From Treponema sp. (GTDB taxonomy: Bacteria > Spirochaetota > Spirochaetia > Treponematales > Treponemataceae), in NCBI GenBank assembly GCA_016286365.1, contig JAEESN010000016.1, positions 1 to 64,000 on the forward strand: 64,000 nucleotides of DNA, in the 5' to 3' direction. The translations under genes and the position numbers were made by a program. Shown in pieces: positions 37,800 through 41,084 of the stretch (position 1 is the first letter of the stretch; each line of letters begins with the position of its first letter). The notes beneath the pieces were generated by a model, which did no database searches, was not told where the DNA came from, and saw nothing but the letters and a program-made list of their open reading frames with translations.

Positions 37800-38459
37800 T
37801 TATTTAGTAAATAATAAAGTCTTAGGGTCAAGATTTACGCTGCCCTTTCCATTTTTTAAAACTGCGAGCGAAATACTGTTTCCTGATGCTGCCAGATGAG
37901 CTACAGTAGCAAAATATTCAAGCTTATCTTTTGGAAGAGTTTTATCCAGTTCCGAAGCTTCACTTGTAAAACTGAACCATGCAGTCATTTTTTCAGATTT
38001 GATGAATGATGCAAAGCAGTCAATATCAGCTTTTGTGATTGCATCAAGATCAAGTCCGTCTACAACAACACTCGAAAGCTTAATTCCACCGTCTTTCATA
38101 GCCTTAATAGTATTAACAACTTTAGGTAAAGTAAAAGTCTCCTGATTGAAATTCAAAATAGTTCTGTTACGAACGATTTCGTCATTAATATCGTCAACAC
38201 TGAAATTCTTTTTCTTGGCAACTTCGGCCATAATGCTTGAATACCATGCAATAACATTTGAAGACTGCTGGTCAAAAGAAACATGAACTAAAGCCTTGTC
38301 TTCCAGAAGTGAATCAATTCCAAACTGAACGAGGATAGAAGTTTTACCCAATCCCTTCTTTGCTGTAATTAATCCCATCTCCCCTGCTTTAAGAGAAGCA
38401 TTTGTTGCCTTATCGAAAAAACGAACCGGACTGTGTTCCAATAAATCTTTCTTTTCCAT
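37800..38459 (-). CDS. RecA/KaiC-like P-loop ATPase
   Basis: A 219-residue single-domain ATPase. Walker A is GLITAKKGLGKTSILVQFG (about residues 30-48), and VSFDQQSSN follows in the place of the KaiC/RadA catalytic region. The Walker B-like strand is LSSVVVDGLDLDA (about 127-139). It resembles the single-domain KaiC/RAD55-like ATPases often found in spirochaetes, whose roles are mostly unknown. There is no DNA-binding or membrane segment. SD GGAGG is strong. A promoter TTGTAT-16 nt-TATCAT precedes it on the minus strand, upstream of 38490. Confidence 0.7.
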   Translation of the reverse strand: MEKKDLLEHSPVRFFDKATNASLKAGEMGLITAKKGLGKTSILVQFGIDSLLEDKALVHVSFDQQSSNVIAWYSSIMAEVAKKKNFSVDDINDEIVRNRTILNFNQETFTLPKVVNTIKAMKDGGIKLSSVVVDGLDLDAITKADIDCFASFIKSEKMTAWFSFTSEASELDKTLPKDKLEYFATVAHLAASGNSISLAVLKNGKGSVNLDPKTLLFTK

Positions 38460-38544
38460 ATAATTTTTCCTCCATAGCGTTTTGATTCACTAACTATGAT
38501 ACCATAAAAATGAAAAAATACAACTTAATTGGAGGGGAAAGGTT

Positions 38545-38846
38545 TTCTGTTCGTACGTTGGCCGGATGTGTGGGTGAAGCCTCGCATAATCCTTATAAAA
38601 AATACATCTGTTTGCTATGCGTACGTCCTTCTAGGCAGCGAAGCCCCGCATAATCCCTTCATAAAATCCATCTATATTCTGTCCGGACTTTCGCTATGCG
38701 GCGCAGCCCCGCACAATCCTTATAAAAAATACATCTGTTTGCTATGCGTACGTCCTTCTATGCGGCGTAGCCCCGCATAATCCCTTCATAAAATCCATCT
38801 ATATTCTGTTCGGACTTTCGCTATGCGGCGTAGCCCCGCATAGCGA
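38545..38846. repeat. Tandem A-B-A-B array of ~63-bp GC-palindrome units
   Basis: Four units follow one another: A1 38584-38647, B1 38648-38710, A2 38711-38774, B2 38775-38837. A degenerate B-like half unit precedes them at 38545-38583. A and B share a GCATAATCC start and a GC-rich palindromic end (for example TGCGGCGTAGCCCCGCA). A1-B1 and A2-B2 repeat with a 127-bp period and few differences. The last unit closes with a perfect stem GCTATGCGG/CCGCATAGC. No coding sequence or spacer structure is seen, so it is neither a gene nor a CRISPR. It fills most of the 530-bp gap between the KaiC-like gene and fusA. Confidence 0.85.
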
Positions 38847-38849
38847 AAC

Positions 38850-38876
38850 AAAAAAAACTCCCTTTACGGGAGTTTT
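38850..38876 (-). terminator. Probable terminator of fusA
   Basis: On the minus strand AAAACTCCC/GGGAGTTTT arms around 5 nt are followed by eight T residues. Confidence 0.75.
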
Positions 38877-38883
38877 CTCTATG

Positions 38884-38988
38884 ATTTATACCGCGCGTAG
38901 CGTCGGTTATGAAATTGATTTGGCGTTCACGTTTATCGTGTAACGCCATAGCATATTATACGGCAAGCGTAAGCTTGTCCGTATAATT
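38884..38988. repeat. Three GC-rich hairpins downstream of fusA
   Basis: Three imperfect palindromes follow one another: ACCGCGC-GTA-GCGTCGGT (38890-38907), GGCGTTCACG/CGTGTAACGCC (38922-38946) and ATACGGCAAGC-GTAA-GCTTGTCCGTAT (38957-38984). They are similar in style to the array to the left. Confidence 0.6.
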
Positions 38989-38990
38989 CT

Positions 38991-41084
38991 TTATTTTTTA
39001 GCAGCCTCTTTTTCAGCCTTGTGTTTAGCAATCAATTCGTCAGCAACGTTGTTTGGAACTTTACCATATTTTTCAAATTCCATTGTGAATTCACCCTTAC
39101 CCTGAGTAGAAGAACGGAGGATAGTAGAGAATCCGAACATTTCTGAAAGTGGAACTTCTGCGTTTACAGTAGATGTGTTGTTTTCATCAGTTGAATCAAC
39201 GATTACACCACGTCTCTGGTTGATAAGACCGAACAAGTTACCCTGGAATTCTGTAGGAGCTGTCATCTGAACTTTCATGATAGGTTCAAGAATAACAGGT
39301 TTTGCTTTAAGATAACCTTCGCGGAAAGCACCAATAGCTGCAATCTGGAATGCGTTATCGTTAGAGTCTACAGGGTGTGACTGACCATCATTAATAGTCA
39401 TCTTAACACCTACGATAGGAGCTCCAATCAAAGAACCTTCCTTCATAGCTTTCTGGAAACCTTTATCACAAGAAGGGATGAATTCATTAGGAATTGCACC
39501 TCCCTTAATTGCGTCTACGAATTCGTAATCTTTGTCTGCAAGTGGTTCCATGAAACCTGCAACACGACCGTACTGACCAGAACCACCAGACTGTTTCTTA
39601 TGAGTGTAGTTAAAGTCACCAGTTGTTGTAATAGATTCACGGTAAGCTACCTGTGGCTGACCAGTTACAACTTCACAGTTATATTCACGTTTCATACGTT
39701 CAACGTATACAGCAAGGTGTAATTCACCCATACCTTTGATGATTGTTTCACCAGATTCAGGATCTGTATATGTCTGGAATGTTGGGTCTTCTTTTGTAAA
39801 GCGGTTTAATGCTTTAGACATCTGAATAGCTGCCTGTTTATCTTTTGGTTCGATAGAAAGAGAAATTACAGGCTCTGGAACGAACATAGAAGCCATAGAA
39901 TAGTTGATTCCACCGCTTACGAATGTATCACCAGATGCACAGTCTACACCGAAGAGTGCTACGATATCACCTGCACATCCTTCGTTGATATCTTCCATCT
40001 GTGCAGAGTTCATACGAACAAGACGTCCAACCTTAAATCTCTTTCTTGAACGTGTGTTATAAAGTTCTTCACCTTTCTTGATTTTTCCCTGATATACACG
40101 TGTATATGTGAGCTGACCGTACTGACCATCATCAAGCTTGAATGCAAGAGCAACTGTAGGAAGGTTATCTTCTGATTTAAGTGGTACTTCTGCTTCGTTG
40201 TTATCAAGGTCAAGAGCAACGTTGTTTACTTCGTTTGGAGCTGGGAGATAGCGTGCTACAGCGTCGAGTAAAGGCTGAATACCTTTGTTTACGTGAGCTG
40301 AACCACAGAATACTCCGACAAACTGTTCTGCCAAAGTTCCCTTACGGATAGCAGCGATGATTTTTTCTTCTGCAACGCCGTCATATCCTTTTTCCATGAT
40401 TTCTTCCATTAAAGAATCATCGAACATAGAAGCTGCATCAAGAAGTTCTTCACGATACTTTTCTGCATCTGCCTGAAGGTTAGCAGGGATTTCTGCAATG
40501 CGTACATCTTCACCATTTGGTCCGTCAAAGTACATAGCCTTCATTCCAACTAAGTCTACAACACCTTCGAGTTTGTCTTCGAGACCGATTGGAAGTTCCA
40601 TCATGTATGCGTTAAGACCAAGTTTTTCGCGTAACTGCATGCGCACACGAACAGGATTAGCACCCTGGCGGTCACATTTGTTTACAAAAGCTACACGTGG
40701 TACATGATATCTTTTAAGCTGACGGTCTACAGTAATTGACTGTGACTGAACACCTGCAACGGCACACAAAATCATGATAGCACCGTCGAGAACGCGAAGA
40801 GAACGTTCAACTTCTACAGTAAAATCTACGTGTCCCGGTGTGTCGATAAGGTTGATAGTATAATCTTTCCACTGAACCTGTGTTGCAGCTGACTGGATTG
40901 TAATACCTCTTTCACGTTCCAGTTCCATGTTATCCATTACAGCACCAACACCATCTTTACCACGAACTTCGTGAATAGCGTGAATCTTGTTACAGTAGAA
41001 CAAAATACGTTCAGAAGTTGTTGTTTTTCCTGAGTCAATGTGGGCACTGATACCAATATTTCTCCATTTAGAAATATCTGCCAT
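38991..41084 (-). CDS. fusA: Elongation factor G, mitochondrial EFG1-like (spirochaete EFG1) type
   Basis: A 697-residue translocation GTPase. The G domain has [18 protein letters not shown] (P-loop), [27 protein letters not shown] and NKCDRQGA; domains II-V follow ([27 protein letters not shown]). The switch I region [19 protein letters not shown] matches mitochondrial EFG1 and the spirochaete spdEFG1 branch, not the E. coli type. In Borrelia, spdEFG1 does translocation while a second paralogue does ribosome recycling; only one EF-G is in this window. SD AGAGG precedes the ATG. Confidence 0.96.

What the first reader, a model, noticed from the sequence alone, without database searches (positions are those of the whole stretch)
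38545..38846. Tandem A-B-A-B array of 63/64-bp palindromic units beside fusA
Two diverged unit types alternate (A1 B1 A2 B2) with a 127-bp higher-order period, plus a decayed half unit in front. The GC-rich ends are palindromic and the spacers are A+T-rich. This suggests an ancestral A-B dimer that was duplicated, a REP/BIME-like architecture in a low-GC spirochaete.
Basis: seen in the sequence. Interest (0 to 1): 0.6.

Follow-up and report, generated by a model that had tools for sequence, protein, structure and literature searches.

The report
Unique hairpin tandem array beside fusA
The repeat beside fusA is a real A-B-A-B tandem array of small DNA hairpins, but it occurs only at this one place and is absent from relatives, so it is a locally grown repeat rather than a dispersed REP element; chasing it exposed a separate, undescribed-looking system in the same genus in which a nuclease-like gene carries its own array of palindromes.

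Summary
Window 38543-38848 is a tandem array, A1 B1 A2 B2, with 63/64-bp units and a 127-bp dimer period (A-A and B-B identity 92-95%, A-B 67-72%). Each unit boundary carries a short hairpin; the last is a perfect 13-bp stem. A decayed B fragment lies in front.

The REP/BIME reading is not supported. The unit was found nowhere else in its own genome, in about 200 genomes of the genus, or in phages, plasmids or viral contigs. The closest relative held has the empty site (GGGGAAAGG|CAAAAAAAA). A RAYT-like gene exists elsewhere, but its flanking palindromes differ. Best reading: a species-restricted satellite gained between the fusA terminator and the next gene, enlarged by dimer duplication, probably without dedicated function.

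Looking for comparable arrays gave a more interesting result outside the given coordinates: a multi-copy, patchy PD-(D/E)XK-like protein family in Treponema whose genes carry upstream arrays of copy-specific palindromes spaced at multiples of 10.5 bp (39/43 genes upstream, 2/46 downstream). Arm sequence tracks protein relatedness, and orphan arrays with the same arms lie elsewhere in the genome. The fusA array is not a member: no cognate gene and a different palindrome geometry.

The parts
38543..38848 (.). gained segment: decayed B fragment plus A1 B1 A2 B2 and the closing hairpin arm
   Evidence: With it removed, the flanks read GGGGAAAGGCAAAAAAAA, identical to the closest relative L043
38545..38562 (+). 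decayed B fragment
   Evidence: 15 of 18 identical to B2; 4/1000 shuffles score as high
38581..38644 (+). unit A1 (64 bp)
   Evidence: 92% identical to A2
38645..38707 (+). unit B1 (63 bp)
   Evidence: 95% identical to B2
38708..38771 (+). unit A2 (64 bp)
38772..38834 (+). unit B2 (63 bp)
38631..38652 (.). hairpin H1, two stem mismatches (loop core GCGAAGC)
38694..38715 (.). hairpin H2, one stem mismatch (GCGCAGC)
38758..38779 (.). hairpin H3, perfect 7-bp stem (GCGTAGC)
38816..38848 (.). closing hairpin H4, perfect 13-bp stem, 7-nt loop
   Evidence: -14.6 kcal/mol as DNA, 0 of 200 shuffles as good
38854..38876 (-). terminator-like hairpin downstream of fusA (AAAACTCCC-GTAAA-GGGAGTTTT then T-run)
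   Evidence: read from the sequence; the pattern scan did not report it
38991..41084 (-). fusA (elongation factor G), upstream neighbour
   Evidence: ORF and synteny
37800..38459 (-). KaiC-like ATPase gene, downstream neighbour; conserved next to fusA in the genus
   Evidence: PF06745 at 27.0 bits, cut-off 26.6; 172 of 200 genomes; synteny

Best explanation
A species-restricted intergenic satellite. A segment of about 306 bp was gained between the terminator-like hairpin of fusA and the upstream region of the KaiC-like gene (shown: empty site in the closest relative). It grew by local tandem duplication: a 63/64-bp unit with a hairpin at its boundary doubled to an A-B dimer, the two halves diverged to about 70% identity, and the dimer then doubled recently (shown by identities; slippage or unequal recombination as the cause is inferred). 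The closing 13-bp perfect stem looks like a fold-back (template-switch) product (inferred). It is not mobile in trans and most likely has no dedicated function; at most its hairpins add insulation between fusA and the next gene (inferred).
For: Array and dimer structure. Unit unique in the genome and absent from about 200 genus genomes, phages, plasmids and viral contigs. fusA and the KaiC-like gene adjoin in the relatives, with intergenic regions of 11-336 bp without the array; excising 38543-38848 restores GGGGAAAGGCAAAAAAAA as in the closest relative. Between the two dimers, 5 of 44 hairpin positions but only 1 of 83 spacer positions differ (Fisher p = 0.019), and every stem difference changes pairing, which fits hairpin-linked mutation better than conservation of the hairpin. 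Local copy-number change of hairpin arrays is seen elsewhere in this lineage: the 66-bp array of contig 25 has about 2.9 copies here and 1.9 at the same place in the relative.
Against: The hairpin loops keep the form GCGNAGC in all four copies (N = A, C, T, T), which could mean selection for an especially stable mini-hairpin. The 63/64-bp spacing is six helical turns, as expected of protein-binding arrays. A 26-bp stretch of the B spacer recurs 96% identical in one other genome, unexplained. The empty site rests on an 18-bp match inside a poorly alignable region.
Confidence: 0.7

Rival explanations
1. REP/BIME element: a dispersed palindromic repeat copied by a RAYT transposase, here as a small BIME array.
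For: Palindromic units in alternating types, intergenic location; one Y1 transposase of RAYT type in the genome.
Against: No second copy in the genome; absent from relatives; the palindromes around the RAYT-like gene are different in sequence.
Confidence: 0.04
2. Orphan binding array of a PD-(D/E)XK-like array-bearing gene (the system seen elsewhere in this genome) whose gene was lost.
For: Same genome carries orphan arrays of that system; 63/64-bp spacing is six turns of 10.5 bp as in that system; A-B dimer period also seen there.
Against: No array with arms TATGCGG..CCGCATA anywhere else in 196 genomes; palindrome footprint 22 bp with a 7-nt loop against roughly 37-43 bp with loops of 11-24 nt; other unrelated arrays of this genome have 40-, 50-, 55- and 66-bp periods, so one in-phase value may be chance.
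Confidence: 0.06
3. A regulatory or insulating element: the hairpins stop or stall read-through from fusA, or bind a protein that controls the KaiC-like gene.
For: Sits between the fusA terminator-like hairpin and the downstream gene; closing hairpin is strong; RNA fold of the reading strand is somewhat better than shuffles (z -2.4).
Against: Relatives run the same gene pair without it; no T-run after the array hairpins; no Rfam family at the gathering threshold (only a sub-threshold match); hairpins H1 and H2 are weak.
Confidence: 0.15

Closest known systems
REP/BIME and REPIN elements with RAYT transposases
   Same: intergenic palindromes, some in arrays with two alternating types
   Different: single locus, no dispersal, no cognate RAYT; the RAYT-like gene present has other palindromes beside it
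Bacterial intergenic tandem repeats (VNTR/minisatellites)
   Same: head-to-tail units, higher-order dimer, locus-specific, differs between species
   Different: each unit boundary carries a hairpin
GTAG/CGTC-tagged palindromic repeats (PMC3733652)
   Same: short stem-loops, reported also in spirochaetes
   Different: dispersed families in that paper; this unit is at one place only
Upstream palindrome arrays of the PD-(D/E)XK-like genes found here
   Same: hairpin-spacer arrays, helical-turn spacing, A-B dimers, same genome
   Different: no gene with matching arms; shorter palindrome with a 7-nt loop

Membership tests
REP/BIME | many dispersed copies in the genome | tested here: not met
   only the window locus
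REP/BIME | cognate RAYT gene flanked by the same palindrome | tested here: not met
   one RAYT-like gene (62.6 bits, below NCBIfam cut-off 80), with unrelated palindromes
REP/BIME | short imperfect palindrome in an intergenic region | tested here: met
Tandem repeat (minisatellite/VNTR type) | head-to-tail copies at one locus | tested here: met
Tandem repeat (minisatellite/VNTR type) | copy number varies between strains of the species | not testable with these tools
   one genome per species is held; presence/absence between species shown
CRISPR array | identical repeats with unique spacers | tested here: not met
   spacers are themselves repeated (A1 and A2 spacers identical)
Palindrome array of the PD-(D/E)XK-like genes | array directly upstream of a gene of that family, or arms shared with such an array | tested here: not met
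   neighbours are fusA and a KaiC-like gene; arms found as an array nowhere else
Palindrome array of the PD-(D/E)XK-like genes | centre spacing a multiple of 10.5 bp | tested here: met
   63, 64, 63 bp against the 10.5-bp rule; alone weak, since roughly a quarter of random periods would pass

The most novel reading that the evidence does not exclude
The fusA array is an orphan target array of an array-bearing PD-(D/E)XK-like gene, that is, one more trans site of a RAYT/REP-like system built on a different enzyme, whose own gene has been lost or lies outside the sampled genomes.
Probability: 0.06. Interest if true: 0.7.

Novelty: new member of a known kind. Interest (0 to 1): 0.4.

Why it matters
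On its own the array is a modest example of how hairpin-bearing tandem repeats arise and turn over between species, with an empty site and dated steps (unit, dimer, doubled dimer). Its main worth was as a lead: comparing it with other arrays of the genome exposed a family of nuclease-like genes with cognate, helically phased palindrome arrays and orphan arrays in trans. If confirmed, that would be a second gene-plus-palindrome partnership besides RAYT/REP, on a different protein fold, and would make it testable what such partnerships are for.

Tried and rejected
REP/BIME dispersal: rejected. Similar elements in phages, plasmids, viral contigs: none. Known RNA family: only a sub-threshold match (Phe_leader, 27.7 bits against 55). 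Pattern scan for promoters and terminators: nothing reported. GNA mini-hairpin core GCGNAGC as a genome-wide signal: no excess in the window (12 found, 11.6 expected). The 26-bp spacer match in another genome (L029) leads to an unrelated promoter-like region without hairpins and was left as unexplained. Literature searches for such arrays in Treponema or for the defence-candidate name gave nothing.

Full report
Observation. The array is real. Tandem Repeats Finder reports period 64 (4.2 copies) and period 127 (2.1 copies, 94% matches, score 477) at 38578-38842; 500 dinucleotide shuffles of the intergenic region gave a single hit of score 52. Units are 64, 63, 64, 63 bp; A1-A2 are 92% and B1-B2 95% identical, A-B 67-72%. 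Four 22-nt hairpin sequences mark the unit boundaries. The last one is a perfect 13-bp stem with a 7-nt loop (-14.6 kcal/mol as DNA); the third is perfect over 7 bp, and the two left-hand ones carry mismatches and fold weakly. In front lies a decayed B fragment of 18 bp.

Uniqueness. Searching the own genome (2.68 Mb, 35 contigs, 99% complete) with the array or its hairpin finds only the window locus. In 196-200 genomes of the genus the hairpin does not occur, the arms TATGCGG..CCGCATA with any gap of 3-33 form an array only here, and the only alignment is a 26-bp stretch of the B spacer in one genome, at an unrelated promoter-like place. Phages, plasmids and viral contigs have nothing.

Empty site. 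The gene pair fusA / KaiC-like ATPase (PF06745, barely above its cut-off) is conserved in the genus. Intergenic regions of relatives are 11-336 bp and hold no such array. The closest relative held (KaiC-like protein 88% identical, C-terminal part of EF-G 100%) has 151 bp. Removing 38543-38848 from the window leaves GGGGAAAGGCAAAAAAAA, which is what that relative has. The rest of the two regions aligns poorly, so the gain is well supported but its exact mechanism is not; no target-site duplication is visible.

How it grew. The dimer doubled recently: the two dimers differ at few positions. Of the differences in the comparable stretch, 5 fall in 44 hairpin positions and 1 in 83 spacer positions (Fisher p = 0.019), and each stem difference makes or breaks a pair. 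This fits mutation focused on hairpins, as known for quasipalindromes (for example PMC7202029), more than selection to keep the hairpins. The perfect closing stem may be a fold-back product; that is inference. I find no reason to assign a dedicated function, and put 0.15 on a regulatory or insulating role.

Not a REP. A RAYT-like gene is present on contig 29 (Y1_Tnp 62.5 bits; NCBIfam REP_Tyr_transpos 62.6 bits against a cut-off of 80). Palindromes around it read CAAGGGGGACAACCCTCGATG and its complement and do not resemble the fusA unit.

What the comparison exposed. To see whether such arrays are common here I sampled 864 kb of the genome. It holds about ten non-coding tandem arrays of period 40-96 bp; 400 kb of a complete relative had none and 244 kb of the closest relative had one. 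One of the others, a 66-bp array on contig 25, is shared with the closest relative with a different copy number. Several others share one palindrome, TTTACGGACGAAA-N16-TTTCGTCCGTAAA: 20 copies in four arrays with 84- or 95-bp spacing. One of these arrays lies upstream of a gene for a 287-aa protein.

That protein belongs to a family present in 53 of 196 genus genomes, with up to 13 copies in one genome. It has no Pfam, NCBIfam or PDB match and was not found in viral contigs. Its conserved C-terminal part (RSKSE..., HPDF, WEHFG) matches the C-terminal 130 residues of the PADLOC candidate PDC-S68 in 38 of 38 members (best 8e-33) and, more weakly, a PD-(D/E)XK entry; I therefore call it PD-(D/E)XK-like, an inference. 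At least two same-arm palindromes lie within 600 bp upstream of 39 of 43 genes, against 2 of 46 downstream and none in shuffled upstream sequence. Arms differ between copies and follow protein relatedness (Mantel r = 0.60, 0 of 2000 permutations; 0.30 for pairs under 60% identity). Centre-to-centre spacings cluster at 64, 74, 84, 95 and 105 bp: for period 10.5 bp R = 0.87 over 110 spacings, and about 1e-12 with one vote per array. Some arrays come from closely related species, so these p-values are optimistic, but the pattern is strong. Phasing to the helix points to a protein that binds duplex DNA, and the co-variation suggests that it is the gene's own product.

The window's genome has two copies of this gene. 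One (contig 31) has the ACGGACGAAA array, and three orphan arrays with the same arms lie elsewhere. The other (contig 5) has TTTACATAAATTT palindromes at 95 bp, and an orphan array with nearly the same arms lies on contig 29. In the closest relative the contig-5 gene and array are missing as a block, about 2.35 kb here against 0.2 kb there, and that relative has no member of the family among the listed matches. This resembles the RAYT/REP partnership in logic, with a different enzyme. I did not find it described in the library held, which does not cover most subscription journals.

Does the fusA array belong to it? No by the tests available: no family gene nearby, no matching arms anywhere, a 22-bp palindrome with a 7-nt loop instead of roughly 37-43 bp with loops of 11-24. 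It shares the six-turn spacing and the dimer pattern only, and other unrelated arrays of this genome are not in phase. I leave 0.06 for the orphan reading.

Limits. Draft genome, so copy number of the array could be collapsed; one genome per species, so no strain comparison; relatives are mostly metagenome assemblies of varying completeness; only a third of the genome was sampled for arrays.

Noticed in passing
L085:10234-11929 (G000 contig 31, about 250.2-251.9 kb) and L211:7531-8995 (contig 5); family loci L181-L230: A multi-copy PD-(D/E)XK-like protein family (no Pfam; C-terminus like PADLOC PDC-S68) whose genes carry upstream arrays of copy-specific palindromes spaced at multiples of 10.5 bp; arm sequence follows protein relatedness. 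Looks like a gene-plus-palindrome system analogous to RAYT/REP; I would rate its interest about 0.75.
   Followed up: partly
L089:15085-15508, L122:18742-19165, L134:4370-4600 (arms TTTACGGACGAAA); L089:8713-9160 (arms TTTACATAAATTC): Orphan arrays far from any family gene but with the arms of the genome's two gene-linked arrays.
   Followed up: partly
L211:7240-9593 against L246:4686-4911: The contig-5 gene and its array are absent as a block from the closest relative.
   Followed up: partly
L126:16482-16592: In-frame 42-bp palindromic repeats inside an open reading frame, with paired (compensatory) changes between copies.
   Followed up: no
L098:7131-7321 and L251:6857-6980: A 66-bp hairpin array downstream of a YebC-like gene, shared with the closest relative at different copy number.
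   Followed up: partly
L123:7458-7648: A 96-bp hairpin-rich unit duplicated at 98% identity between dnaK and dnaJ.
   Followed up: no
L136:160-220 and 1375-2220: RAYT-like transposase gene flanked by palindromes of the type CAAGGGGGACAACCCTCGATG.
   Followed up: partly
window 38880-38990: Three further, unrelated hairpins between the fusA stop and its terminator-like hairpin (ATAACCGACGCTACGCGCGGTATA; GGCGTTACACGATAAACGTGAACGCC; ATTATACGGACAAGCTTACGCTTGCCGTATAAT), absent from the closest relative; a stretch is 78% similar to another intergenic region.
   Followed up: no
L029:1501-1526: 26-bp match (96%) to the B spacer in another Treponema genome, in a promoter-like region of a mobile-looking gene cluster.
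   Followed up: partly
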